In this document: positions 310 to 62,836 of the stretch, in pieces
How positions within the stretch are numbered: position 1 is the stretch's first letter
How the letters are laid out: every line of letters starts with the position of its first letter
Assembly (NCBI GenBank): GCA_017512365.1
Contig: JAFWGQ010000004.1
Location: 1 to 64,000 of the forward strand
DNA from: Mogibacterium sp.
GTDB lineage: Bacteria > Bacillota > Clostridia > Peptostreptococcales > Anaerovoracaceae
Length of the DNA stretch: 64,000 bases
Reading direction: 5' to 3'
The notes under the pieces: generated by a model
What the model was told of the DNA's origin: nothing
The model's database searches: none
What the model saw: only the letters and a program-made list of their open reading frames with translations
Program-made: the position numbers and the translations under genes

Positions 310-407
310 TGGCGGGAGTACGTGGGAATCGAACCCACCCGGGAGGCTCTTAACCCCCTGCAGACGGTTTTGAAGACCGCGAGGCACACCAGCACCTGTC
401 TACCCCC
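310..407 (-). tRNA. selC: tRNA-Sec (anticodon UCA), selC
   Basis: The minus strand folds as a long tRNA of 95 bases plus an encoded CCA. The anticodon loop is CUUCAAA, giving anticodon UCA, which reads UGA. The extra arm is long (about 20 bases, around the AGGGGGUUAAGAGCCUCC part) and the T arm is GUGGG-UUCGAUU-CCCAC. Length and anticodon fit selenocysteine tRNA and no canonical tRNA. It sits between grdD and nfnA, downstream of the two UGA-containing genes it serves, and may be co-transcribed with them. Confidence 0.93.
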
Positions 408-6655: not shown

Positions 6656-7969
6656 TTAGTCTTCGAAGACCTTCTGTCCGTCGACAGGTGTCTCGAGGGC
6701 CTTGAGAGCCTTCAGGACGAGCTTGCGGCGGAGTTCCTTCTCCTCAGCCTTGTCAAGAGCAGGATTGCCCAGCGGATGAGGTATAGCGATCGCAGGAACG
6801 ATCCTGTTCGCGCCTACTGTCAGCGAAATAGGTGTTACCGTGCATACATGGACTACAGGGAGTCCGGCTCTCTCGAGCTCTTTTACCATCGTTGCGCCGC
6901 AACGAGTGCAGGTTCCTCACGTAGAGGTCAGGATGACTGCGTCAACTCCGTCTGCTTTGAGTCTCTTTCCGATCTCCGCGCCGAAGCCTTTGGCGTTAGC
7001 TACGGAAGTACCGTTTCCTACTGTTGCATAGTATTTCTCATGCAGCTTGCCGATAACGCCTTCCTTCTCGAGGTCACGCAGCACGTCTACAGGCAGTACT
7101 CTGTCTGCGTCCGCATTCGCATATACAGGGTCATAGCCGCCGTGAGCAGTCTCGAAAGTGGTATCGTCAAGATCAGTGAAGCCGGCAAGGCTGTATTCGC
7201 CGAATCTCGAAGCGCTGGAGCTCTCGATGTGATCCGGGTTGCCCTTTGGCACGATTCCGCCGGATGTTACCAGAGCGATGGTAGCGTGAGCCATGTCTTT
7301 TACAGCAGGGTTTGGCTCGACTCTGTCGAAGTCAGGCATCGGATACTCTGTGACGAAAGGCTTGTCAGCAAGTTTCTTAAGGAGCATGTCGACAGCTCTC
7401 TTCGAGCCTCTCTCCTTCTCGAAGAAGTTGACACGAACGCCCTGGTTCATATATCCGTCCTCGCAGGAAGCGCCGATCTTCTCGCCCTTCGCATACTTGA
7501 GAGCGAATGCTGTCATCTTCTTGACTGCATCTCTCATGCCGGCAGCGCTGTCCTTTGTCTCAAGGATGTATACCTTGTCCTTGTACATGTCTGCGCCAGG
7601 GTTCTCGACATACATTCCTGTCATGGACTTGATGCCGAGTTCCTCAGCTACTGCAGCTGCAATGGTTCCGCATGCCACACCGTAACGTCCTGCGTTGAAT
7701 GCAGGACCTGCGATGAACAGATCAGGTGCAAGATCCTTGACCCAGCCGAGGATCTCCTTCTTTACTGCTTCGATGTTTTCGTTGAAGTATGAGTCTCCGC
7801 ATACGATGGTAGCGATGATCTCAGCGTCATCTCCGAATCCCTGATTGAATGCCATTCCAGGTCCGATAACCTCGCCCTTGTGAAGCTCAGCAGGGGTGTC
7901 GGCTTTTTCCTCTCCGCCGATTCCGGCAAAGAACTGGTTGATGTAGTGAACTACTTTATATTTAGCCAT
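6656..7969 (-). CDS. grdB: Glycine reductase component B, gamma subunit GrdB (contains selenocysteine)
   Basis: Reading through the in-frame TGA at 6917-6919 gives 437 residues, with selenocysteine at 351 in LTSTUGTCTRCGATMVKE. This is the known GrdB active-site context. GrdB with the processed GrdE subunits forms the substrate-specific component B: GrdE's pyruvoyl group holds glycine as a Schiff base and the GrdB selenocysteine takes part in transfer of the carboxymethyl group to GrdA. Start ATG 7969 (MAKYKVVHYINQFFAGIGGEEKAD) is preferred over ATG 7975 because GGAGG is 8 bases upstream of the former and only 2 from the latter. It follows grdE by 24 bases. Its glycine type, not sarcosine or betaine, is inferred from the riboswitch and from pairing with GrdE. 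Confidence 0.95.
6890..6904 (-). promoter_or_regulatory. Candidate bacterial SECIS hairpin in grdB
   Basis: Twelve bases after the UGA codon the mRNA reads CGUUGC-GGC-GCAACG, a 6-bp perfect stem with a short G-containing loop. Bacterial SECIS elements are short stem-loops inside the coding region just downstream of the UGA, and they bind SelB. Position and size fit; the loop does not match the E. coli consensus, as is usual in other lineages. Confidence 0.6.
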
Positions 7970-9834: not shown

Positions 9835-9868
9835 TGTTTCATCTGTATTAATGATCCAGAAATAGGTA

Positions 9869-10010
9869 TCCTTCCCGGTCCTTTTGCTTGAAAGATTCGT
9901 CCGTTAAGCTGCTATCTCTACCGGACTTGCCTCTTCAGCGACCACCCACCGGTATAGCAAAACAAACAATGCCCATGCAGGTACCGATGGCTGATTCTCT
10001 CTCGGGAGGA
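9869..10010 (-). promoter_or_regulatory. Glycine riboswitch (gcvT-type aptamer) upstream of grdX
   Basis: On the minus strand a P1 stem pairs UCCUCCCG (10010-10003) with CGGGAAGGA (9877-9869). Inside are GAGAGAAUC, the core GCUGAAGAGGCAAGU, a GUCCG/CGGAC hairpin, and AAUCUUUCAAGCAAAAGGAC, all hallmarks of the gcvT aptamer (…GGAGAG…CCGAAGGGGCAA…CUCUCAGGCAAAAGGAC). The P2 arm is extended by a CAUCGGUA/UACCGGUG stem. I see one aptamer, not the usual tandem pair. Such RNAs normally control glycine cleavage; here the target is glycine reductase. Confidence 0.85.
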
Positions 10011-10050
10011 TTCAGACCCTTTATTAAAAAAGCCCCTATTTCTTGATAAT

Positions 10051-27336: not shown

Positions 27337-27368
27337 GGCGATATGTAAAGAACTCTTTACATATCGCC
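27337..27368. terminator. Long palindrome between the converging Na/Pi and potD-like genes (contains palindrome copy 4)
   Basis: GGCGATATGTAAAG-AACT-CTTTACATATCGCC is a perfect 14-bp stem with a 4-base loop, and its core is the same TGTAAAG-N4-CTTTACA repeat (27344-27361). Flanking U-runs are weak. It lies where two genes converge, so a bidirectional terminator role is plausible. Confidence 0.6.
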
Positions 27369-27384: not shown

Positions 27385-28515
27385 CTATTCTGCTTTTACC
27401 TTTTTCCAGTAGTCGCTGTACAGCTCTGTCGTCTTTGCATCGAGGGTCACCAGCGATTCGCATCTGTCGATGGTCTCCTCATCCGGGAAGACAGCCTTCT
27501 CTTTCAGATACTCGTCATCTATGAGATCGAGAGCCGCTTCGTTAGGCGTTGTGTAATACAGATAGTCGAAGTTCTGAGCAGCCACCTCGGCTTTACAGAG
27601 GAAGTTTATCCACTTCTCGGCGTTCTCTTTGTTGACGGCTTCCTTAGGCACCACCCATGAGTCGATGAAAAACTCCGACCCCTCCTTCGGGATAACGAAG
27701 TCGACGTCCTCATTCAGGTCCTTTGTGTATATGTACTCGCCGTTCCATACGACGCCTAGCGCCGCAGAGCCGTTAGCGAGAAGATCTCTGGCCGAGTCGT
27801 TAGCGTACTTGTACACGAGAGGTTTCTGAGCGATCAGGTCGCCCGCAGCCTTCTTTATCTCCGCCTCATCCGTCGAATTCTCGGACCATCCGTTCTTCTT
27901 GAGTCCGATCATGAAGGCGTCTCTGACGCTGTCCGGCATCACGATCTGGTCCTTGTACTTTTCGTTCCACAGATCGTCCCACGAATCGATCTCATCGCCC
28001 TTTGTCATCTTCGTATTGTACAGTATGCCCGCTATGCCGGCCTGATAAGGCACGGAGTACTTGTTGCCCGGATCGAAAGACTCGGACTTTTTCATGTAGA
28101 CCTCGCCGATGTTTCTGACCTCCGGGATATTGTCCATGTTGAGCTCGCCCAGCATGTCATTGGCTATCATGCGCTGTATCATGTAGTCGGAGGTGCATAT
28201 GCAGTCGTAAGTCGTGGCGTTGTTTTCGAGCACCGTATACATCTCTTCTGCCGTATCGTAGGTGTCGATGATCACGCGCACGCCCGTCTCGGCCTCGAAG
28301 TCCTCGGCCAGCATCGGGTCGAAGTAATCTCCGTAGCTGTAAACGTATACCTCGCCGTTGACACCGCTCCTGCAGCCGGACATCATAAGCGCCATCCCCG
28401 CGGCAAGAACGCATAAAGCGAGCACCGCTACCGCCCTTCCGAGTCTTGATGGTCCTTTTCTCTCTGCTATTACGGCGCTGGCCGCGCGCTTTTTATAATT
28501 TATATTCATTTTCAT
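27385..28515 (-). CDS. PotD-like polyamine ABC transporter substrate-binding lipoprotein
   Basis: 376 residues from ATG 28515 (MKMNINYKKRAASAV); an ATG six bases in is equally possible, and a GTG overlapping the upstream stop would give 403. After a basic N terminus comes a hydrophobic signal ending in a lipobox (ALMMSGC), so it should be lipid-anchored outside the cell. The mature part is a type 2 periplasmic-binding fold of the spermidine/putrescine family: VYSYGDYFDPMLAEDFEAE, YDCICTSDYMIQRM, YQAGIAGILYNT, WNGEYIYTKDL. No ATPase or permease genes for an ABC importer follow it. It comes straight after the permease-GGDEF gene, so it may be a sensor or feeder for that protein (inference). Confidence 0.85.
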   Translation of the reverse strand: MKMNINYKKRAASAVIAERKGPSRLGRAVAVLALCVLAAGMALMMSGCRSGVNGEVYVYSYGDYFDPMLAEDFEAETGVRVIIDTYDTAEEMYTVLENNATTYDCICTSDYMIQRMIANDMLGELNMDNIPEVRNIGEVYMKKSESFDPGNKYSVPYQAGIAGILYNTKMTKGDEIDSWDDLWNEKYKDQIVMPDSVRDAFMIGLKKNGWSENSTDEAEIKKAAGDLIAQKPLVYKYANDSARDLLANGSAALGVVWNGEYIYTKDLNEDVDFVIPKEGSEFFIDSWVVPKEAVNKENAEKWINFLCKAEVAAQNFDYLYYTTPNEAALDLIDDEYLKEKAVFPDEETIDRCESLVTLDAKTTELYSDYWKKVKAE

Positions 28516-28592
28516 TTTATCCCGTATTAGTATAAACTTTCCTTGCAATACCGGCAGCAATCCCGGCACACTCGAACCGCTGGCCGTTCCCG

Positions 28593-31433
28593 TCACTGAG
28601 CCATCTTAGCGTCTATCTGCTCTTCGCGGCGCAGAGCATCCTCGTACATGCTTTCATTGAAGTACCCGACCTCGCCGCTGTGGCCGTTCCTTACGCTGTC
28701 GGCCGCAAGCTTGGCACGGTCGAACCTCTGCCCTACTCTGAGGCTCTTGTCGACATTAGCGTATACGCCGATACGAAGTCGAGCAGCGGCTATCCTTCCG
28801 GCATCCGTGCCGTCCTCCATTACGAAGTCTTCTATGTCGCTGTAGCTGGCCCTGTGCGGGCAGTAGATCTCGAATTCGTCGACCTTACGTCTGCAGGCTA
28901 TGCCGCCCGCGTGCTTCGCGTAGTTCTGTATGCACACGCCCATGTGCCTTAGTACATCGTCTCCGAATTCCCTTCCGAAGCGCTCGTTTATCATGTGGAA
29001 GCGGTTGATATCCACCATGACGGCATCCATCGGAGTGTCCGGATAGAGCTCGTCGTACTTTGCGACGCCCATCCAAAAGTATTCCTTCTTGAACAGATTC
29101 GTCAGCTCCTCGCGAAGGTGAGCGGAATTGATATCCTCGTCTTCTCCGAGGAATTCTATGCTCTTGCTTACCCTCTTTCTTATGAGCTCGTTATCCTCTT
29201 CCTCGCCGACAACCGACGCATCCTCGAGATCCGCAGCGCTGTCGTCCCTGGTGACGGCGCCGAGGCTCTTGAGAAGCATCTTCTCTTTATACATCAGCTC
29301 GTCGGCGCGTTCAAAGACGGTATGGAAATCGTGATCTGACTCAGGCTCGAACATGGACATGCCCCCGGATACTACGACCCTTCCGAGACTGATGTTGTCG
29401 ACCGAACGGTTATGGAGCATCTGCAGAAGCTCCTCTCTTATATCGTAGTCGTGGCCGCTCAGTATGACAGTGAACTCGTCGCCGCCGAGACGGTATACCG
29501 GACTGTGTTGATATATCTCGCATATCATGGCGGAGGCGGCGCAGATGTACTCATCGCCTACCTTGTGCCCCTGAGTGTCGTTTATATGCTTAAGCCCGTT
29601 GACATCGCAGACAACGACAGCGAAGTCAGCGCACTGAGTCCCCGCTATCGCCTCGTCGATCTCCTTTTGCTTCACGAGATAGGCATGCTTGCTCTTGACG
29701 CCGGTCAGAGGATCCCTGTTGGCTATCATCTCGCTCTCTCTGGTCCTTTTATTTAGGAAGGAGTGGTTTGAGAACATCATGATGACCGCAAGTGCAAAGA
29801 GGGACATCGTCATGACGATGGTGTTCGTGTCGTTCTCCTCGAGCTCGGAAATCTGCTTCTCTATGAACTCCTCGTCCTCGCGGCGCTTGCTGTCCTCGGT
29901 CGCGCTGTAATGCGTGCGGACATTGTCTATCATGCGGTTGTTGGCAACGATCATCGACTGGCGCATCCATACAACGGATATAAAGAGCAGTATGGCCAGC
30001 ATGGCGGCCCATACTATAACGGACTTGCCGTACTTTCTTTCCTTGTCGCGTTCGAGCACGATCCTGAAGTATACGAAGCCGAGCAGTGTCCAGACGATGA
30101 AGATAAAGAAGGTCTCCCTCTCGATGGAGCCTGCCGCCGTAAGGTTTGGTATCAGAGTGTACAGGCCATAGCCCGCCATTATCGCAACGCCGGCAAGACC
30201 CGTGATCCTCTCGATCCTGTCCGCCCTTCTTCCGGCCTTTACGGCCGCGGATCCCGACACGAGCGCGTAGATAAGGGTAGCTCCTATAGTCGTGACGTCT
30301 ACGATCCATCCGATCGCGGTCCTTCCGACAAATGGGATGAATAAGGAAAGCCCTGCGATCAGATACATCGCATTGGCCGGCAGGGCCCTGTCATTGAGCC
30401 TTCCGATATTCTCGGGCAGCAGCCCGTCCCTTCCCATCGTAAGGAAGAGCCTGCTGACAGCCGAGGTATTGCCTATAAGGCTCGAGATTATGAGAGCCAT
30501 CAGAGCAGCCATAAGGATGCTGACCCCGGTGTTTCCCATATAGTGCTTTGCCGCATAGAACGCAGGCAGAGCCTCGAGCCCCTCGAGATTGCCCCTGTCC
30601 CTTATATACTCGAGCCACGAGCCGTAGCGCTCCGGATATGCCGTCACCGAGGCCATGGTTATGAGTATGTAGAGGACCGTCGTGATCACGACGGATATAA
30701 CGAGATAGCGAAAGGTCTTGTCCCTTTTGAAGCTGAATTCCGCGGCTCCGTGCGATACACTCTCAAAGCCTATGAACGCCCACGGAGATATCACGGCTAT
30801 CCTGACTATCTGCGAAAGAGCCTTTGTCTCGGGCACATAAAGAGGCTGCCATGTCATCCTGTGGCCCGTGATCGAGCAGATGCCGACTATCAGTATGCCG
30901 GCCGTAAAGACAGCGGCCATGGCTATCATTATCACGGTAGATGCGCGCCTGGCTCTGCTGCAGACAAGCGCCGTAAGCACGAGCGCGGCTATGGTAACGA
31001 TAATCTCGCCCACGTAGATATCGTAGCCGAATATCGTATACAGCTTGCCGAACTGCAGCACCGGACCTATGAAGTAGCGCGAGAACAGCGGTATCGAGGT
31101 CGCGTTCGCCCACAGGACCGACATATATGTAAGCGCGAGGAACCAGGCGGTCAGGAAGCCGTAATCAGCCCCGAAGACCTCTTTGGTATAGGTGTAGGCT
31201 CCTCCCGAATCCGGATATATCTGCATCAGGTAGGAGTAGTTGCGGGCTATGATCAGCATGACAATGCCGCCAAGGATCATCCCGATTATGCTTCCGGCGA
31301 GCCCCGACTGCGCAAGGTAGGTGCTGCTCGTGACCACAAGCGAGCCCCAGCCTATGGCCGTACCAAGCGAAAAAGCTATGAGGCCGAGAGGCGAAAGGTG
31401 CCTGTTCAGTTTCTGTTCTGTGGCTTTCTTCAT
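28593..31433 (-). CDS. Amino-acid/polyamine permease fused to an active-type and a degenerate GGDEF domain
   Basis: 946 residues from ATG 31433 (MKKATEQKLNRHLSPLG). Residues about 1-420 are an APC-superfamily permease: SLGTAIGWGSLVVTSSTYL, PDSGGAYTYTKEVFG, PWAFIGFESVSHGAAEF and about 12 membrane helices. Two or three further helices follow (to about 570). A diguanylate cyclase domain comes next: DPLTGVKSK, CDVNGLKHINDTQGH and RLGGDEFTVIL, with no RxxD inhibitory site upstream. The last 190 residues are a second GGDEF-like domain where the signature is replaced by CRRKVDEFEIYC. The protein probably links uptake or binding of an amine or amino acid to c-di-GMP synthesis (inference). It lies between the HPt gene and the PotD-like gene. 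Confidence 0.88.
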   Translation of the reverse strand: MKKATEQKLNRHLSPLGLIAFSLGTAIGWGSLVVTSSTYLAQSGLAGSIIGMILGGIVMLIIARNYSYLMQIYPDSGGAYTYTKEVFGADYGFLTAWFLALTYMSVLWANATSIPLFSRYFIGPVLQFGKLYTIFGYDIYVGEIIVTIAALVLTALVCSRARRASTVIMIAMAAVFTAGILIVGICSITGHRMTWQPLYVPETKALSQIVRIAVISPWAFIGFESVSHGAAEFSFKRDKTFRYLVISVVITTVLYILITMASVTAYPERYGSWLEYIRDRGNLEGLEALPAFYAAKHYMGNTGVSILMAALMALIISSLIGNTSAVSRLFLTMGRDGLLPENIGRLNDRALPANAMYLIAGLSLFIPFVGRTAIGWIVDVTTIGATLIYALVSGSAAVKAGRRADRIERITGLAGVAIMAGYGLYTLIPNLTAAGSIERETFFIFIVWTLLGFVYFRIVLERDKERKYGKSVIVWAAMLAILLFISVVWMRQSMIVANNRMIDNVRTHYSATEDSKRREDEEFIEKQISELEENDTNTIVMTMSLFALAVIMMFSNHSFLNKRTRESEMIANRDPLTGVKSKHAYLVKQKEIDEAIAGTQCADFAVVVCDVNGLKHINDTQGHKVGDEYICAASAMICEIYQHSPVYRLGGDEFTVILSGHDYDIREELLQMLHNRSVDNISLGRVVVSGGMSMFEPESDHDFHTVFERADELMYKEKMLLKSLGAVTRDDSAADLEDASVVGEEEDNELIRKRVSKSIEFLGEDEDINSAHLREELTNLFKKEYFWMGVAKYDELYPDTPMDAVMVDINRFHMINERFGREFGDDVLRHMGVCIQNYAKHAGGIACRRKVDEFEIYCPHRASYSDIEDFVMEDGTDAGRIAAARLRIGVYANVDKSLRVGQRFDRAKLAADSVRNGHSGEVGYFNESMYEDALRREEQIDAKMAQ

Positions 31434-31503
31434 ATGTACCCTTTTTCTTTCAGTATCGCCCGCGCATCCTCGGAGCAGCTCCGGGTTGATATGCATCAGG
31501 CTG

Positions 31504-31848
31504 CTATTTGCAAAGCTCCGTCAGCTCTTCGAGTGCCCTGTCGTATTCGTTCATAAGATCCGTAAGGTCAGGCATCTCTTTCGCGTTCCTGAGCTTTTCG
31601 GTGATCTCCTTCACCGGCCTGGCAAGCGGGGTCAGTTCAAGATTGCCCAGAGATCCTTTCAAAGAATGTGCAGCGTCAAAAGCCCGTCTTACGTCACCCT
31701 CAGCCACCGCTTTTTCAAGTATCCTGAGGTTCTCATCCTCGAGCATCATGTTTACGAGCTGGAGGTAGAAATCCTCCATATCCATGCAGCGCGCAACGCC
31801 CTCTTTTACATCAGCGCCGTACGCAGACAGTTTTTCCATCGTTAACAC
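31504..31848 (-). CDS. HPt (histidine phosphotransfer) domain protein
   Basis: 114 residues. GTG 31848 is chosen because AAGGAGG is 6 bases upstream; an in-frame ATG three codons in is the alternative. The helical protein has the HPt signature AAHSLKGSLGNL, with the phospho-accepting histidine at about residue 61. It overlaps the response-regulator gene by 7 bases and so is coupled to it. An HPt shuttles phosphate between a hybrid histidine kinase and a receiver; the REC domain encoded upstream is the natural partner. No kinase is in the window. Confidence 0.88.
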   Translation of the reverse strand: MLTMEKLSAYGADVKEGVARCMDMEDFYLQLVNMMLEDENLRILEKAVAEGDVRRAFDAAHSLKGSLGNLELTPLARPVKEITEKLRNAKEMPDLTDLMNEYDRALEELTELCK

Positions 31849-34025
31849 AGGCTGCCTCCTTCCAGAGCTTTTTCGGCCTCTGCCATCATGTCTCTGTCGT
31901 GATCATCCTTATTACCGAACGCGATACCGAATCTGAGGGCTGCATCCGGTGATCCTTCCCGGAATTCATCATAAGCTGTCTGTATGCTCTGCACCTTTTC
32001 GCTGATGACGTCCTTCTCATTGATGTTCGCCCTTGTGAGTATGACCGCAAACCTGTGCACTCCGAGGCGGCATACGAAGTCCGAAGCCCTGAAGCTGTGT
32101 TTGAGCACTTCAGCGACTGCGCGCACTGTCCTGTCCGCGCTATCAGACCCTTCGTTCCTCGATATATCCTCGTAGTTGGATATATCCACAAGGACGAGAG
32201 TGCTGTGCTTTCTGTCCGCGTCATACAGCAGGATATCGAAGCCGCTGCTGTTGTACAGCCCTGTCGACGGGTCGTGCAGCGCCTCGTATGTCATCCTGTC
32301 GCGGATAAGCTTGCGGCTCATCCTCCTTTCAGGAGTCATAGGAGCATCGCTTTTGCGGTCCTTTGCCTCAATGATGAATTCCTCAAATTTCGGTGCCGGA
32401 ACAGGCTCCGAGAAATAGAATCCCTGGACTATATCGCAGCCCATGGCTTTGAGTGTGAACAGCTGCTCTGCAGTCTCTACTCCCTCAGCGATGACAGGCA
32501 CGCCGAGCGATGCAGCGATCTCGATGACTATTTCGAGCATGCGGGTGTTCTTGCCGTTTTTGAAAGCCGTCCTGATGAACTGCATATCGAGCTTCAGCGC
32601 ATCTACAGGAAGATCCGAGAGCATATTGAGTGATGAGTAGCCTGCGCCGAAATCATCCATCTCGATAAAGAATCCGTGCTTTCTGAAATTCTCTACTGTC
32701 CTTACTATGTGATCCGAGTCCTGGCTGTAAGCGGACTCTGTTACCTCGATCATCAGATCCCTGCCGCTGAGTCCGTATTCATCTGTCAGGTCGCTGACTG
32801 AATCGACTATATCAGGATCGAACAGGTCCACCCTGGATACATTCACGCTGACAGGTATCTTGACGCCGTATCTTACGTACCAGTCCATTATCTGTTTTGC
32901 GGCTTCCGTCCGGATGTACTGGTCCATCTGCTTGATCAGACCGTTGCTCTCAAAGAGGCCGATAAAATATCCCGGACCGAGAAGGCCGAATTCAGGATGC
33001 TCCCAGCGTGCCAGCGCCTCGGCGCTGTGAAGCACCGGCAGTTCTCCCCTGATGTCGAATTTCGGCTGGTAATACACTTTGAACTGATTCTCTTCAATTG
33101 CGCGAGGGAAATCCACGAGCAGCTGCTCTGAGAACATCGCAGATTCGTGCAGCTCGCTGTCATATATCGCGACTGCCTTGGTGAAGGTGCTGCGGACGGT
33201 ATCCGCGGCGAGCTTGGCTCTGTCGAAGCGCCTCTCGATCTCGATCGATTTGTCCGCGTTCGGATAGACGCCCATCCTCAGCCTTACTACATTCTCATCT
33301 TTGCCTTCTCCGGCAGCGCCTTCGGAAATAGAGTCAAGCAGATCTGTATAGTCACTTCTGTGAATGCAGTAAATGAGGAAGTTGTCCGCTTCTTTTCTGC
33401 ATGCGATGCCTTCTCTTTCATCCAGTATCCCTGTGATATTGTCTGCTATGCGTTTAAGCACCTCGTCGGCATATATCCTTCCGTATCTCTCGTTGATCAT
33501 ATGGAAGTGGTTGATGCTCAGTGCTATGGCATCCATCTCCAGCTCCGCATGACGTATATCGAACTGGTCTGCGTATCTGAAAAAGAACTCGCGGCTGTAG
33601 AGGCCGGTGAGACTGTCGTGCTCCGTCTGCCCTATTATTATGCGGTCCTCAGACAGCTCAATAGTGCGTCTGACTCTGGCTTTGATGACCTCCGGTCTCG
33701 GATAAGGCTTAGGTATAAAGTCAGAAGCACCAAGGTCAAGACTCTCGACCTCAGCGTTCCTGTCGGCCGTCATAACTATGACCGGCAGCCTGTGGTGGAG
33801 ATCCTTTTTCCTTATCCTTCTGAGTATCTCCATGCCTTCGATGTCCGGCAGATTCAGATCGAGCAGAACGAGACTCAGCCTGTCGCCCTTTTCATCGATC
33901 AGGGCAAGCGCCTCCCTGCCTGTATGAGCAGTCAAAATATCATAACTGCCCTGAAGTATCATCGCGAGTATCTCGCAGTTCACGTGCTCATCTTCGACTA
34001 TCAGTATGAGTTTCTTGTCTTGCAT
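31842..34025 (-). CDS. Response regulator with REC, degenerate GGDEF, EAL and second degenerate GGDEF domains
   Basis: 727 residues. Residues 1-125 are a receiver: acidic EDE, phospho-acceptor Asp56 in VLLDLNLP, and IPKPYP with the conserved lysine. Residues about 140-310 are a GGDEF-like domain in which the signature is CRKEADNFLIYC. Residues about 320-565 are an EAL domain with all key motifs: EALARWEHP, NVSRVDL, EVTES, MDDFGAGYSSL, IAEGVET. The C-terminal 150 residues are a further GGDEF-like domain (LYNSSGFDILLYD, RLGVHRFAVIL) lacking the signature. It should be a c-di-GMP phosphodiesterase controlled by phosphorylation. The HPt gene overlaps its end. Confidence 0.92.
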   Translation of the reverse strand: MQDKKLILIVEDEHVNCEILAMILQGSYDILTAHTGREALALIDEKGDRLSLVLLDLNLPDIEGMEILRRIRKKDLHHRLPVIVMTADRNAEVESLDLGASDFIPKPYPRPEVIKARVRRTIELSEDRIIIGQTEHDSLTGLYSREFFFRYADQFDIRHAELEMDAIALSINHFHMINERYGRIYADEVLKRIADNITGILDEREGIACRKEADNFLIYCIHRSDYTDLLDSISEGAAGEGKDENVVRLRMGVYPNADKSIEIERRFDRAKLAADTVRSTFTKAVAIYDSELHESAMFSEQLLVDFPRAIEENQFKVYYQPKFDIRGELPVLHSAEALARWEHPEFGLLGPGYFIGLFESNGLIKQMDQYIRTEAAKQIMDWYVRYGVKIPVSVNVSRVDLFDPDIVDSVSDLTDEYGLSGRDLMIEVTESAYSQDSDHIVRTVENFRKHGFFIEMDDFGAGYSSLNMLSDLPVDALKLDMQFIRTAFKNGKNTRMLEIVIEIAASLGVPVIAEGVETAEQLFTLKAMGCDIVQGFYFSEPVPAPKFEEFIIEAKDRKSDAPMTPERRMSRKLIRDRMTYEALHDPSTGLYNSSGFDILLYDADRKHSTLVLVDISNYEDISRNEGSDSADRTVRAVAEVLKHSFRASDFVCRLGVHRFAVILTRANINEKDVISEKVQSIQTAYDEFREGSPDAALRFGIAFGNKDDHDRDMMAEAEKALEGGSLC

Positions 34026-34056
34026 GGTCCTGCTCCGTTTCTTCGTATACAGGTAG

Positions 34057-34086
34057 ATTATACCCTAATATATGTTCAAAGCACAA
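34057..34086 (-). promoter_or_regulatory. Promoter of the REC-EAL gene
   Basis: TTGTGC and a perfect TATAAT separated by 18 bases on the minus strand, 31 bases upstream of the start codon. Confidence 0.6.
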
Positions 34087-34089
34087 AAA

Positions 34090-35232
34090 TCAGCGGTCCT
34101 GCCGGTGATGCTGTTTCTTCATCTCATACATCCTGTCATCCAGATCCTTCATGAATGTATCCATGTCGCCTCTGCCCGGCTCGAATGTGCTGATGCCGTA
34201 TGAGAAATCAAGTCTGTATTCGTTTTCACCGCGCCCTGCATTGAACTCCGCGAGACTGCGCTCCATAGCAGCGACATATTCGTCCATGCTGCGGTCCGCT
34301 TCCATCCGCTCCAGCACTATGAATTCATCTCCTGCAAAGCGGAATACACTCTCCTTGCTGACACGGGACTTCTTCAGGATCTCCGCGACCTGCACGAGAG
34401 CCTTGTCTCCCTCCGAATGTCCGTAGTTGTCGTTGATGTCCTTGAACCTGTCTATATCGAGCATCATGCCCGAGAACCTGTAGCCGCGGTCTATCCAGGT
34501 CGCCAGTACGAAATCCAGGTACTTGCGGTTATATATGTAGACCAGAGAGTCTATGTAAGCGCTCTCGTTCTGCTGCATCATGTACATGCCCGTCAGGCCA
34601 ATCGCCGATGAAAGCCATGCCAGAGAGAGTCCGTAGAAAGCGAACTGCAGACCTGCGCCGATGAGTATGGGTATCAGGAACATGTTGATGTTGAAGAAGG
34701 CTCTGGCGCCGTATTCCTTCTCGTAGCGCCGGGTGACTACGATCGCGCTGATCAGGATATACAGTATGACGACGTAATAAACATAGCCGAAAGGTCTTCT
34801 TTCATAAACATTGCTGTCGGAGATATAGTAAACGACCGGAGTGAACAGATTGACCAGAGTCATTACGAGCATAAAGCCTACAACAAATATCTGAGGCTTG
34901 TACTTCTGCCAGATGCGTCCGGTATCGCCGTAGAGTCCGATATCCACATAGATAAGAACACAGAACGGGAGTATAAGATTTATGCTGAAAAGATATGTAT
35001 TGGCGATATGGTTGAGCAGTATAGCTCCGGGAAACGTCTTTCCGTCGAGGAAGTACGAAAAAGCCTCAAAAAAGCAGCCGAACATTACGCCGAATATAGT
35101 GAAGGAGTATATCCTGTCCTCCACGCGGCGGGCCAGTATCTTTGTGCGCGACACATAATACAGCATGAGCAGTATGAATATGCCCACGCCGTTGGCCATG
35201 TATATAGATCTGAGATCCATGCTTGTCTGCAT
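34090..35232 (-). CDS. Membrane-bound diguanylate cyclase
   Basis: 380 residues from ATG 35232 (MQTSMDLRSIYM), with AGAGGA 5 bases upstream. Residues about 5-205 hold seven hydrophobic segments, a membrane sensor of MASE or 7TM type that I cannot assign more closely. The GGDEF domain follows: DSLVYIYNRKYLDFV, MLDIDRFKDINDNYGHSEGD and the active-site RFAGDEFIV. AGDEF is an accepted active variant. No RxxD inhibitory site precedes it. It starts 70 bases after the 850-residue pseudopilin gene, separated by a long hairpin, so partial read-through from the pilin operon is possible. Confidence 0.92.
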   Translation of the reverse strand: MQTSMDLRSIYMANGVGIFILLMLYYVSRTKILARRVEDRIYSFTIFGVMFGCFFEAFSYFLDGKTFPGAILLNHIANTYLFSINLILPFCVLIYVDIGLYGDTGRIWQKYKPQIFVVGFMLVMTLVNLFTPVVYYISDSNVYERRPFGYVYYVVILYILISAIVVTRRYEKEYGARAFFNINMFLIPILIGAGLQFAFYGLSLAWLSSAIGLTGMYMMQQNESAYIDSLVYIYNRKYLDFVLATWIDRGYRFSGMMLDIDRFKDINDNYGHSEGDKALVQVAEILKKSRVSKESVFRFAGDEFIVLERMEADRSMDEYVAAMERSLAEFNAGRGENEYRLDFSYGISTFEPGRGDMDTFMKDLDDRMYEMKKQHHRQDR

Positions 35233-35250
35233 TGCTTCCTCTGTCAATAG

Positions 35251-35288
35251 AAATGAGAACAGTCTCCCGAACGAAACTATTCTCATTT
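35251..35288 (-). terminator. Hairpin between the modular pseudopilin gene and the diguanylate cyclase gene
   Basis: AAATGAGAA-T-AGT pairs with ACT-G-TTCTCATTT around an approximately 11-base loop, followed by CTATT. The U-run is weak, so termination may be incomplete, letting some pilin-operon transcripts enter the cyclase gene. Confidence 0.55.
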
Positions 35289-60353: not shown

Positions 60354-62111
60354 TTAAATATCTTCATAAATCACACGCTGTACTTCTTCGGAAGTCGTGA
60401 TGCCGTCTTTAACAAGCTGTATCGCATTGTCCTTAAGTGATATGAATCCGCTGTCAGGATCAGCGAGCATGGATTCGATCGCCTCTCTGCCCTTTCCGGC
60501 AGCTATCATCCTGCGGACCTTGATCGTAAGAGGCAGGATCTCGAATACTCCCGTCCTGCCGCGATAACCTGTATCGAAGCATTTAGGGCAGCCCTTGCCG
60601 CGGTAGAACACTCTCTCCGGATCGTATTCAAACCCAAGATCGACCTGTTCCTCCTCGTCCGGATGATATGCCTCTCTGCAGTCAGGACATATCCTTCTGA
60701 CAAGTCTCTGAGAGAATACGCCCTTGAGAGCACTCGCTACCAGATAAGGCTCTACTCCCATGTCTATCAGTCTTTCGACAGTACCTACAGCATCGCTTGT
60801 ATGGATGGTCGAAAGCACAACGTGGCCTGTGATGGCAGATCTCATTGCGATCTCGGCCGTCTCGCCGTCACGGATCTCTCCGACGCAGATGATGTCAGGG
60901 TCCTGACGCAGGATGGCACGAAGGCCCTTTGCGAATGTCATGCCTGTCTTTTCGTTTATCTGTACCTGATTGATTCCGTCGACGTTGTACTCCACAGGAT
61001 CTTCAAGCGTTATGAGGTTGACCTCACGCTTGTTCAGGTCGTTTATCATTGCGTACATCGTGGTCGATTTACCGGAACCGGTAGGACCGACGATCAGGAT
61101 AACTCCGTTCTTGATCTTTATCAGCTTTTCGTATTTTTTTATATCGTCTCCGAGCAGACCTATCGCGGAGTGATCGAGGTTTCCCCCGGACTTGTCGAGC
61201 AGTCTGGCTACGATCTTCTCTCCGTAAACCGTCGGCAGTGTCGATACACGAAGGTCGATATCCCTGCCCTGCATCTTTACGTTGAAGCGTCCGTCCTGAG
61301 GCACACGTCTTTCGGTTATGTCAAGGTTTGACATGACTTTGATACGCGCTATCACCGCGGACTGGAGTTCGCGCGGGACTGTAAGGATATCTCTGAGCAG
61401 TCCGTCTATACGCATGCGTACAGAGAACTCGTCTTCTCTCGGTTCGAGATGGATATCGCTGGCGCGCTCTGTGACTGCACGCTCGATGATGGAGTTTACG
61501 AGCCTGATGGCAGGTGCCTGATTAGCACTGTCTTCTCCAATCAGATTAGCTGTGAACGCCGCATCCTTGTTGGCCTCATCATCGTCGCCTGACAACGCAG
61601 CCTCTCTCTTCATCTCCTCGATGGCTTTGGCAGCGCCTTCGTTTCCGTACAGGATCTGTATCGATCTGTCGATGGCATTAGCCATGGCTATCATAGGGAT
61701 TATCTTTTTATGTGTAGTCTTGCGGACCTCTTCAAGTGCATAGAAATTCAGAGGGTCCGCCATGGCAAGATAAAGCTCATCCCTGATAATGCGTACAGGA
61801 ACGACCTGATACTGTTTGGCGATATTGGCAGGAACGACCTGCGCGAGTTCTGTCGGTATGTTGATCTTGTTGAGATCGATAAACTCGATGCCGAGCTGCA
61901 TCTGCAGAGCTTCGATCATCTCCATCTCTGTGATGTAGCCTTCATCGATCAGTACCGTACCGAGACGCTTTCCTGAGCCCTTCTGCTTGGCCAGAGCCTC
62001 TTCGAGCTGTTCCTCGGTTATGAGACCTGCCGCGATAAGGATATCGCCAAGTCTTTTCGGCCTCTTGCTGCCGCTGTTCCCGTTTCCGCCGGAAGTTTCT
62101 ATGACTGCCAT
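60354..62111 (-). CDS. pilB: Type IV pilus extension ATPase PilB with c-di-GMP-binding type MshEN domain
   Basis: 585 residues. The N terminus carries two consecutive MshEN motifs: RLGDILIAAGLITEEQ... (residues 20-43) and RLGTVLIDEGYITEME... (49-72), each keeping R-L-G, the following G, two spaced leucine-type positions (L then L in the first, M then L in the second) and the final Q. This motif pair binds c-di-GMP in MshE. The ATPase domain has Walker A GPTGSGKST, Walker B CVGEIRDGET and a zinc site CPDC...CPKC. It heads the core pilus operon and has a strong promoter. Confidence 0.95.
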   Translation of the reverse strand: MAVIETSGGNGNSGSKRPKRLGDILIAAGLITEEQLEEALAKQKGSGKRLGTVLIDEGYITEMEMIEALQMQLGIEFIDLNKINIPTELAQVVPANIAKQYQVVPVRIIRDELYLAMADPLNFYALEEVRKTTHKKIIPMIAMANAIDRSIQILYGNEGAAKAIEEMKREAALSGDDDEANKDAAFTANLIGEDSANQAPAIRLVNSIIERAVTERASDIHLEPREDEFSVRMRIDGLLRDILTVPRELQSAVIARIKVMSNLDITERRVPQDGRFNVKMQGRDIDLRVSTLPTVYGEKIVARLLDKSGGNLDHSAIGLLGDDIKKYEKLIKIKNGVILIVGPTGSGKSTTMYAMINDLNKREVNLITLEDPVEYNVDGINQVQINEKTGMTFAKGLRAILRQDPDIICVGEIRDGETAEIAMRSAITGHVVLSTIHTSDAVGTVERLIDMGVEPYLVASALKGVFSQRLVRRICPDCREAYHPDEEEQVDLGFEYDPERVFYRGKGCPKCFDTGYRGRTGVFEILPLTIKVRRMIAAGKGREAIESMLADPDSGFISLKDNAIQLVKDGITTSEEVQRVIYEDI

Positions 62112-62267: not shown

Positions 62268-62341
62268 TGGAGGCGACACCCGGATTTGAACCGGGGATAG
62301 AGGTTTTGCAGACCTTTGCCTTACCACTTGGCTATGTCGCC
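62268..62341 (-). tRNA. tRNA-Cys (GCA)
   Basis: Cloverleaf with anticodon loop TTGCAAA, T arm CCCGG-TTCAAAT-CCGGG, and encoded CCA. Last gene of the six-tRNA cluster. Confidence 0.95.
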
Positions 62342-62348
62342 ATATCGT

Positions 62349-62372
62349 GAAGGGACTCATCTGAGTCCCTTC
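62349..62372. other. Hairpin between tRNA-Gln and tRNA-Cys
   Basis: GAAGGGACTCA-TC-TGAGTCCCTTC is an 11-bp perfect inverted repeat. The T-run lies on the plus-strand side (TTTTCTT), opposite to tRNA transcription, so it would terminate antisense rather than cluster transcripts. It may guide tRNA processing. Confidence 0.6.
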
Positions 62373-62378
62373 TTTTCT

Positions 62379-62452
62379 TGGCTAGGGTAGCAGGATTCGA
62401 ACCTGCGAATGACGGAATCAGAATCCGTTGCCTTACCGCTTGGCTATACCCC
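62379..62452 (-). tRNA. tRNA-Gln (CTG)
   Basis: Cloverleaf with acceptor GGGGTAT, anticodon loop TTCTGAT (CTG), T arm GCAGG-TTCGAAT-CCTGC and encoded CCA. Confidence 0.93.
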
Positions 62453-62502
62453 ATCAGCATGGATATTGTAACACAAATACGCAGCTTGTTAAAGAGAAAA
62501 AT

Positions 62503-62579
62503 TGGGGTGGATGGTGGGATTCGAACCCACGAATACTGGAGCCACAACCCAGGGTCTTAACCACTTGACGACACCCACC
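62503..62579 (-). tRNA. tRNA-His (GTG)
   Basis: Anticodon loop TTGTGGC, the extra 5' G(-1) opposite C73 that identifies histidine tRNA, T arm GTGGG-TTCGAAT-CCCAC, encoded CCA. Confidence 0.94.
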
Positions 62580-62596
62580 ACATTTTTCAAAAAAGG

Positions 62597-62673
62597 TGGC
62601 GACCGGGAACGGGCTCGAACCGTCGACCTCCAGCGTGACAGGCTGGCATTCTAACCAGCTGAACTACCCGGCC
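62597..62673 (-). tRNA. tRNA-Asp (GTC)
   Basis: Anticodon loop CTGTCAC, acceptor GGCCGGG, discriminator G, T arm with TTCGAGC, encoded CCA. Confidence 0.95.
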
Positions 62674-62678
62674 GCATA

Positions 62679-62754
62679 TGGTGGGACCAATAGGGCTCGA
62701 ACCTATGACCCCCTGCTTGTAAGGCAGGTGCTCTCCCAGCTGAGCTATGATCCC
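62679..62754 (-). tRNA. tRNA-Val (TAC)
   Basis: Anticodon loop CTTACAA, acceptor GGGATCA, discriminator A, T arm with TTCGAGC, encoded CCA. Confidence 0.95.
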
Positions 62755-62759
62755 ATATC

Positions 62760-62836
62760 TGGTAGCGGCGACTGGACTTGAACCAGTGACCTTCCGGGTA
62801 TGAACCGGACGCTCTAGCCAGCTAAGCTACGCCGCC
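62760..62836 (-). tRNA. tRNA-Met (CAT), elongator type
   Basis: Anticodon loop TTCATAC, acceptor GGCGGCG fully paired with CGCCGCT, D arm AGCTTAGCTGGCTAGAGC, encoded CCA. The paired first base and the D arm fit elongator, not initiator, tRNA. A tRNA-Ile with modified CAU cannot be wholly excluded. Confidence 0.9.

What the first reader, a model, noticed from the sequence alone, without database searches (positions are those of the whole stretch)
27385..35232. c-di-GMP signalling island built around a permease-GGDEF fusion and a PotD-like lipoprotein
Five adjacent minus-strand genes encode a 7TM diguanylate cyclase, a REC-EAL response regulator, an HPt, an amino-acid/polyamine permease fused to GGDEF domains, and a PotD-type binding lipoprotein without ABC partners. 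All the parts needed to sense an extracellular amine or amino acid and convert it to c-di-GMP synthesis or breakdown are together, except a histidine kinase. A transporter that is itself a cyclase (a 'transceptor') is uncommon. Domains are seen in the sequence; the circuit is inferred.
Basis: partly seen in the sequence, partly recalled or inferred. Interest (0 to 1): 0.78.

Follow-up and report, generated by a model that had tools for sequence, protein, structure and literature searches.

The report
Amino-acid permease wired to c-di-GMP
A bacterial membrane transporter for amino-acid-like molecules appears to have become the sensing half of an enzyme that makes the signal molecule c-di-GMP, and related bacteria have plugged the same transporter into other kinds of signalling machine.

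Summary
The five minus-strand genes are real, but they are not one five-part polyamine circuit. The core is a three-gene module: an APC-permease–GGDEF fusion, an HPt, and a REC–degenerate-GGDEF–EAL phosphodiesterase. The module recurs away from PotD in another family; in three aligned relatives the permease-cyclase and the REC-GGDEF-EAL protein are one chain. The permease half belongs to a clade of 40 'signalling permeases' (support 100/100) whose outputs are exchanged: hybrid histidine kinase (19), GGDEF (16), GGDEF-REC-GGDEF-EAL (3), HD-GYP (2). Four kinase-type loci have HPt and REC-EAL beside them (one HPt frame broken), so the 'missing' kinase is what GGDEF appears to have replaced. The PotD lipoprotein is probably a resident neighbour: it is the genome's only detected PotD, keeps its place in genus members without the module, and an orthologous potABC without potD lies about 50 kb away. 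The 7TM cyclase is not conserved with the module; it borders a type IV pilus locus whose PilB carries two c-di-GMP-binding MshEN motifs, a possible target. My paper searches showed no APC-permease–GGDEF fusion. Ligand, transport and signalling are untested.

The parts
28593..31496 (-). APC permease (aa ~25-480) + two-TM adaptor hairpin (aa ~490-575) + intact GGDEF (aa 592-739) + degenerate GGDEF-like domain (aa ~769-962)
   Evidence: Pfam AA_permease_2 and GGDEF; hydropathy of the aligned family; tree; GGDEF motif intact in 19 of 19 cyclase-type rows, this one included
31504..31848 (-). HPt phosphotransfer protein, phospho-acceptor histidine in AHSLKG
   Evidence: Pfam Hpt; alignment with HPts of relatives
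31842..34025 (-). REC - degenerate GGDEF - EAL - degenerate GGDEF, predicted phosphodiesterase
   Evidence: Pfam; EAL motif residues and REC Asp present in 14 of 14 aligned homologues
27385..28515 (-). PotD, polyamine-binding lipoprotein; probable binding protein of the unlinked PotABC; neighbour rather than proven member
34090..35286 (-). Multi-TM diguanylate cyclase (AGDEF), not conserved with the module
   Evidence: its N-terminal part gives only weak matches in relatives' loci (L094, 24 bits; L139, 20 bits)
27337..27368 (.). 14-pair inverted repeat between PotD and the convergent Na/Pi gene; likely terminator
60354..62111 (-). PilB with MshEN domain: two 24-residue c-di-GMP motifs with a 5-residue spacer (the first fits the strict printed motif, the second differs at two hydrophobic positions and fits the relaxed one); candidate effector
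   Evidence: motif from PMC5013675
62268..62836 (-). Six-tRNA cluster; tRNAs of the same cluster border the REC-EAL gene directly in four relatives

Best explanation
The core is a candidate transceptor module. An APC-type amino-acid carrier domain is joined through a conserved two-helix hairpin (TM13, about 45-60 outside residues, TM14) to a cytoplasmic GGDEF cyclase. Occupancy or cycling of the carrier by an external amino acid or amine is proposed to move the hairpin and change cyclase activity (inferred). The neighbouring HPt and REC-EAL protein form the opposing arm: a hybrid kinase encoded elsewhere phosphorylates the HPt, which phosphorylates REC and sets EAL phosphodiesterase activity (inferred; the HPt histidine and REC aspartate are present). 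The arrangement probably descends from a permease-hybrid-kinase/HPt/REC-EAL phosphorelay in which the kinase was replaced by GGDEF (supported by the tree), leaving the HPt without its in-cis kinase. A possible local target is the MshEN domain of PilB in the adjoining pilus locus (inferred from position). PotD is the binding protein of an unlinked PotABC importer that happens to reside here (inferred from orthology).
For: Domains and motifs. 40 signalling permeases form one clade (100/100), with kinase types outside a nested 22-row clade (100/99) that holds all the GGDEF, fused and HD-GYP rows and one kinase row; over all 46 rows and 6 labels the tree needs 7 changes, against a mean of 22.4 in shuffles. 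Fusion of PERM-GGDEF with REC-GGDEF-EAL in 3 aligned relatives, plus L012 with a broken frame. Kinase-type loci with HPt and REC-EAL (L036, L041, L163; L138 with a broken HPt frame). The REC-EAL tree and the PERM tree agree where they share taxa (window with L024 and L140, then L025 and L026, the fused ones further out). Complete potABC without potD at about 78.1-81.0 kb of the same contig. MshEN motifs.
Against: No structure could be predicted, so fold, hairpin and pocket rest on sequence. The ligand is unknown and sensing is not shown; in CbrA, L-histidine did not significantly affect the measured activities in vitro (PMC7096432), so a fused carrier need not be the sensor. G280, the window's nearest relative by PotD (92%) and REC-EAL (87%), keeps REC-EAL beside PotD but has neither PERM nor HPt there, and G228 and G135 keep HPt and REC-EAL without PERM, so the module is not indivisible. 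PotD stays beside PERM in the window and two species whose carrier domains are 58-63% identical to the window's, with little room for a promoter of its own in those two (about 3 and 48 bases from PERM to the PotD ORF start), so a functional link is not excluded. The three candidate kinases were found by kinase-domain similarity only.
Confidence: 0.6

Rival explanations
1. One reading: PotD binds a polyamine and docks on the outside hairpin or carrier of PERM-GGDEF to switch the cyclase.
For: The best solved matches of PotD are PotD-type proteins (4eqb, E 3.7e-66; binding-site residues were not checked against a source); adjacency kept in three species; NspS-MbaA precedent (PMC8967002).
Against: Only PotD detected in the genome, with an orthologous potABC lacking potD; PotD in all 21 genus genomes but beside PERM in only the window and G259 among them (G481, is a third); 45 of 47 fetched carrier loci show no PotD, though many are cut by contig ends; PotD of PERM-bearing G259 is no closer to the window's (81%) than PotDs without PERM beside them (G280 92%, G292 86%, G246 81%).
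Confidence: 0.1
2. The carrier domain is only a transporter; the fusion tethers a constitutive cyclase to the membrane, or lets the cyclase state regulate transport instead of the reverse.
For: CbrA kinase works without its SLC5 domain and its transport works without the kinase (PMC7096432); standalone relatives of the same carrier exist.
Against: The hairpin is kept across kinase, cyclase and HD-GYP outputs, though shortened in the outer kinase clade and in L165, and outputs are exchanged while the carrier stays, as for a sensory input.
Confidence: 0.25
3. The cluster is a chance pile-up at a variable spot beside a tRNA cluster and has no joint function.
For: The stretch between the tRNA cluster and potD is variable: empty, HPt+REC-EAL, or full module; and upstream of potD other genomes have REC-EAL with pilin-like genes or a dCache-GGDEF protein.
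Against: HPt, REC-EAL and PERM recur together away from this place in other families (REC-EAL + PERM in L161; all three in L162 and L163), and PERM-GGDEF is fused to REC-GGDEF-EAL in three relatives.
Confidence: 0.05

Closest known systems
CbrA / CrbS, SLC5-STAC histidine kinases (transceptors)
   Same: A secondary carrier fused in one chain to a signalling output through an adaptor; CbrA binds and transports L-histidine (PMC13022988 abstract and passages; PMC7096432 abstract and passages).
   Different: There the carrier is SLC5, the adaptor STAC and the output a histidine kinase; here the carrier is APC-type, the adaptor a two-TM hairpin, the output GGDEF, and in relatives GGDEF-REC-GGDEF-EAL, HD-GYP or hybrid kinase. 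No STAC match listed.
NspS-MbaA polyamine sensing (Vibrio, Sinorhizobium)
   Same: A PotD-like protein paired with a membrane c-di-GMP enzyme (PMC8967002 passages; PMC9993111 listing and abstract start only).
   Different: MbaA is a GGDEF-EAL receptor, not a carrier; NspS acts beside a separate PotD1 importer, whereas here this is the only PotD detected and potABC is unlinked.
PotABCD spermidine/putrescine importer
   Same: PotD here and potABC about 50 kb away are orthologous to contiguous potABCD of G082 and G032.
   Different: Here potD is separated from potABC, as in other genus members.
Cationic amino-acid transporters (CAT1, CAT4) and a bacterial amino acid transporter (6f34/5oqt; the name GkApcT is recalled)
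   Same: Among the nearest solved relatives of the carrier half.
   Different: Remote (E 2.1e-21 at best with a family profile); no c-di-GMP or kinase output is named for those chains.
MshEN-type PilB/MshE ATPases
   Same: Window PilB has two MshEN motifs with a 5-residue spacer.
   Different: Only position on the contig links it to this module.

Membership tests
Transceptor (carrier fused to signalling output) | Carrier and output domains in one open frame | tested here: met
   same layout in relatives
Transceptor (carrier fused to signalling output) | Carrier binds or transports a solute and this changes output | not testable with these tools
   needs transport and cyclase assays
SLC5/STAC kinase (CbrA-type) | SLC5 carrier domain | tested here: not met
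   Pfam gives AA_permease_2 / AA_permease only for the carrier part of the window protein
SLC5/STAC kinase (CbrA-type) | STAC adaptor | tested here: not met
   no STAC match listed at E up to 0.1 for the window protein or 0.01 for 9 relatives; a two-TM hairpin lies there
SLC5/STAC kinase (CbrA-type) | Histidine kinase output | tested here: not met
   GGDEF in the window; a kinase in 19 of the 40 signalling rows of the tree
NspS-MbaA | PotD-like binding protein encoded beside the receptor | tested here: met
NspS-MbaA | Receptor with GGDEF and EAL in one MbaA-like chain | tested here: not met
   carrier + GGDEF + degenerate GGDEF, no EAL
NspS-MbaA | Binding protein dedicated to signalling, separate from the importer's PotD | tested here: not met
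   single PotD detected in the genome and an orphan potABC
PotABCD importer | potA, potB, potC and one potD in the genome | tested here: met
   unlinked; joint function not tested
APC carrier family | AA_permease_2 above gathering score, glycine-rich TM1 motif | tested here: met
   98.3 bits against 27; GTAIGWG in TM1
Active diguanylate cyclase | GGDEF signature and metal-binding Asp region | tested here: met
   GGDEF and DVNGLKHIND present; activity not assayed
Active EAL phosphodiesterase | EAL, N, E, DD, K, E, Q residues (list recalled) | tested here: met
   activity not assayed
Complete in-cis phosphorelay | Histidine kinase encoded beside HPt and REC | tested here: not met
   none among the five genes; three hybrid kinases elsewhere in the genome

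The most novel reading that the evidence does not exclude
A whole receptor superfamily in which one APC-carrier chassis plus a two-helix adaptor is wired by domain exchange to synthesis (GGDEF), destruction (HD-GYP, EAL) or phosphorelay (hybrid kinase), so that amino-acid or amine flux through a secondary carrier sets c-di-GMP directly, without a separate sensor domain.
Probability: 0.5. Interest if true: 0.75.

Novelty: new variant of a known kind. Interest (0 to 1): 0.6.

Why it matters
Carrier-plus-signal proteins are described as rare (PMC13022988), and the ones I saw studied are SLC5-kinase fusions. An APC carrier that keeps its body while swapping kinase, cyclase and HD-GYP outputs would give a natural experiment in how transport is turned into signal, and a chassis for building nutrient-to-c-di-GMP sensors. 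It also shows how a kinase could be exchanged for a cyclase while its HPt and REC-EAL partners stay, which would explain an orphan HPt. The MshEN-bearing PilB on the same contig makes a testable link from nutrient to pili.

Tried and rejected
PotD as the module's own sensor: weakened by the orphan potABC and by genus-wide synteny. The 7TM cyclase as a fifth conserved part: only weak N-terminal matches in relatives (L094, L139); the extra cyclase beside PERM-GGDEF in L162 shows two N-terminal TMs in my scan and matches the window's cyclase only from about residue 220 on. A c-di-GMP riboswitch linking the pilus genes: none at gathering score in the window; the own-genome search for RF01051 found none, but its controls did not ring either, so it shows nothing. 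Substrate from neighbours of standalone permeases: no single pathway in the ten proteins scanned. The named-organism scan returned two weak matches to the GGDEF part and gave no name for the lineage.

Rows and counts: the carrier tree holds 46 rows. Not in it: L012 (frame broken by a stop), the G015 copy in L131 (my ORF picker took the other strand), the divergent own-genome permease L044 (branch too long; only), and hits that I did not fetch in long form (18 regions after and 9 after one search were fetched). Many loci end at contig ends, so neighbour counts are lower bounds. The ORF picker missed the HPt of L085/L086 and PotA/PotB of L043; tblastn found them.

Literature. One search listed 2 papers, one search listed 12 of 124, one search listed 4, none; no listed title or abstract start describes an APC permease fused to GGDEF or kinase. 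Apart from the passages cited, these papers were not read. The library is open-licence PMC only. One search was run with the underscore dropped from the term, so its zero means little.

Full report
OBSERVATION. The five minus-strand genes are present as described. The permease protein has an AA_permease_2 domain, an intact GGDEF and a second, degenerate GGDEF-like domain (KVDEF). That second domain is 41% identical to the GGDEF-like domain of the neighbouring REC protein, which suggests it was copied from that family; the other 15 GGDEF-type rows of the tree set are 729-845 residues long and show no match to it. The REC protein's EAL residues and receiver aspartate are kept, and both its GGDEF-like domains are degenerate. 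The HPt histidine is kept. The 7TM protein reads AGDEF. A 14-pair inverted repeat at 27337-27368 lies between PotD and the convergent Na/Pi gene. The own assembly is listed as 92.9% complete with 6.94% contamination, but the PotD neighbourhood matches that of other genus members.

THE CARRIER FAMILY. A family-wide search with the whole protein found a match at E <= 1e-100 in 17 of 296 genomes, the own genome included. An order-wide search with a carrier+hairpin profile found 43 of 393 at E <= 1e-80, standalone carriers included. A class-wide search found 8 of 391 at E <= 1e-100, of which one is the own genome and one (G072) a standalone carrier. The lineage is unnamed in these data; it looks like Clostridia to me, which I did not test.

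OUTPUTS ARE EXCHANGED. Fetched relatives show PERM-GGDEF, PERM-GGDEF-REC-GGDEF-EAL (L031, L032, L033), PERM-HisKA-HATPase-REC and PERM-HD-GYP (L164, L165). In a tree of 46 carrier domains, the 40 with signalling outputs form one clade (100/100): 19 kinase, 16 GGDEF, 3 GGDEF-REC-GGDEF-EAL, 2 HD-GYP. A nested clade of 22 rows (100/99) holds all 16 GGDEF, all 3 fused, both HD-GYP and one kinase row (L139); the other 18 kinase rows lie outside it. Over all 46 rows and 6 labels the tree needs 7 changes, against a mean of 22.4 when labels are shuffled; the two HD-GYP rows do not group together and L165 has the longest end branch. So the output was probably switched from kinase to c-di-GMP enzymes, with L139 a possible switch back. 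Signature motifs are kept in 19 of 19 GGDEF-type rows, 19 of 19 kinase-type rows (H-box) and 2 of 2 HD-GYP rows; L036 is cut off by its contig end just after the H-box.

THE ADAPTOR. Between carrier and output lies a hairpin of two predicted helices around window residues 495-509 and 558-574, enclosing about 45-60 residues. The window's hairpin segment matches all 19 cyclase rows, L164 and 8 of 19 kinase rows (L036, L037, L038, L040, L041, L138, L139, L163), partly L166 and L167, and not L042, L165 or the outer kinase clade of eight (L132-L137, L146, L147), which has a shorter version. It takes the place that STAC has in SLC5 kinases; that it transmits signal is inference.

PARTNERS. Among the 40 signalling loci I find an HPt in the same local gene run in 10 (window, L024, L140, L032, L036, L037, L041, L138 with a broken frame, L162, L163) and REC-GGDEF-EAL in 11 (window, L024, L140, L025, L026, L036, L041, L138, L161, L162, L163), with 3 more fused (L031, L032, L033). 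These are lower bounds because many loci end at contig ends; I saw neither in the outer kinase clade. L162 and L163 come from one genome of another family: L163 is the kinase version with HPt, REC-EAL and a further hybrid kinase; L162 has REC-EAL, HPt, a two-TM cyclase and PERM-GGDEF. This offers an explanation for the lone HPt of the window: in sister systems a kinase is fused to the carrier, and here GGDEF stands in its place. Three hybrid kinases elsewhere in the genome, 52-58% identical over kinase and receiver domains to the hybrid kinase of the L138 locus, are candidates for feeding it; that similarity is generic and weak evidence.

POTD. It is the only PotD match in the genome at E <= 0.001. 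All 21 genus genomes (own included) have a match at E <= 1e-50 with 61-100% identity. In the 21 genus loci, the Na/Pi-cotransporter gene follows PotD in 16 (in six with a YitT-type gene between); in L094 Rrf2 follows directly; three loci end at a contig end; and in L098 (G082) PotD is the last gene of a contiguous potABCD, as in L099 from a genome outside the genus. The own genome has potA, potB and potC at 75, 78 and 74% identity to G082's, on the same contig about 50 kb away. Downstream of potC lie folD and a relA/spoT-type gene; upstream of potA one ORF of 313 residues was not identified. PotB- and PotC-like genes at 70% identity or more are found in 21 of the 22 genomes searched, G082 itself included; G290 (82% complete) has only remote ones. 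The simplest reading is that PotD serves this unlinked PotABC; that is orthology, not a test of function. PotD sits beside the carrier fusion in the window and two species of the same genus (G259, G481), and in none of the other 45 of 47 fetched carrier loci.

HISTORY OF THE SPOT. In G259, G481, G228 and G135 the REC-EAL gene directly follows a tRNA cluster (six tRNAs; three seen in G481 before its contig end); then come HPt, the permease fusion (absent in G228 and G135) and PotD. In nine relatives (L082, L083, L084, L088, L089, L091, L092, L093, L095) PotD follows these tRNAs (four of the six seen in L084) with no module between. G280 has PotD and REC-EAL but no PERM or HPt match there. REC-EAL genes of the six PotD-linked loci form one clade (98/99), so the set was probably inherited and pared down. 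In the window the same six-tRNA cluster is about 27 kb further on, at 62268-62836; a type IV pilus locus, a 3669-residue protein and the 7TM cyclase lie between. G280 carries homologues of three of the pilin-like genes beside REC-EAL, and G292 of one pilin-like gene and of the giant protein's N-terminal part; the core pilus genes (PilB and others) gave no match in the stretches fetched from these two, which end short. The pilus-side genes look like a later insertion in this branch (inference).

TARGET. PilB (60354-62111) has an MshEN domain with two 24-residue motifs (residues 20-43 and 49-72) separated by 5 residues, the layout shown to bind c-di-GMP (PMC5013675; abstract and passages). The first fits the strict printed motif; the second has Tyr and Met at two hydrophobic positions and fits the relaxed motif of that paper. 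Regulation of the pilus by this module is inference from position.

LITERATURE. CbrA is called a rare transceptor (PMC13022988; abstract and passages) and is the nearest functional parallel, though L-histidine did not significantly affect its activities in vitro (PMC7096432; abstract and passages). NspS-MbaA is the parallel for a PotD-like protein with a c-di-GMP enzyme (PMC8967002; passages). Searches listed no paper whose title or abstract start describes an APC-permease-GGDEF or -kinase fusion; most subscription papers are outside that library.

VERDICT. Shown here: gene content, motifs, exchange of outputs across the family, recurring partners, an unlinked potABC, the MshEN motifs. Inferred: that the carrier senses, that the hairpin transmits, that the HPt takes phosphate from an unlinked kinase, that PotD serves PotABC, that PilB responds.

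Noticed in passing
window 35302-62111 (-): Type IV pilus locus (PilB with MshEN, PilT-like ATPase, PilC, prepilin peptidase, PilM, pilin with N_methyl), several ORFs with pilin-like N-termini judged by eye, and a 3669-residue protein with Flg_new and SpaA domains.
   Followed up: partly
L164:5435-7813 and L165:954-3179: Carrier domain fused to HD-GYP, a type of c-di-GMP-degrading enzyme, with HD and GYP motifs intact.
   Followed up: yes
L130:4083-6953, L142 and L141: Non-signalling relatives of the carrier: one fused to a sugar-transfer-type ATP-grasp domain, one beside such a gene, one beside a Mur-ligase-like gene.
   Followed up: partly
L087:7209-9875: MatE/MurJ-like transporter with HATPase_c_2 and an HD-CE domain in one chain, beside PotD in G196.
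   Followed up: no
L081:9811-11475: In G292 a dCache-HAMP-GGDEF protein lies directly upstream of PotD, where the module lies in the window.
   Followed up: partly
window 310-407, 6879-6916, 9866-10014: tRNA-Sec, a SECIS_4 element and a glycine riboswitch: signs of a selenoprotein and glycine-use region.
   Followed up: no
L150:3651-6998 (own genome C5): Hybrid histidine kinase with SBP_bac_3 sensor stretches, one candidate partner for the lone HPt.
   Followed up: no
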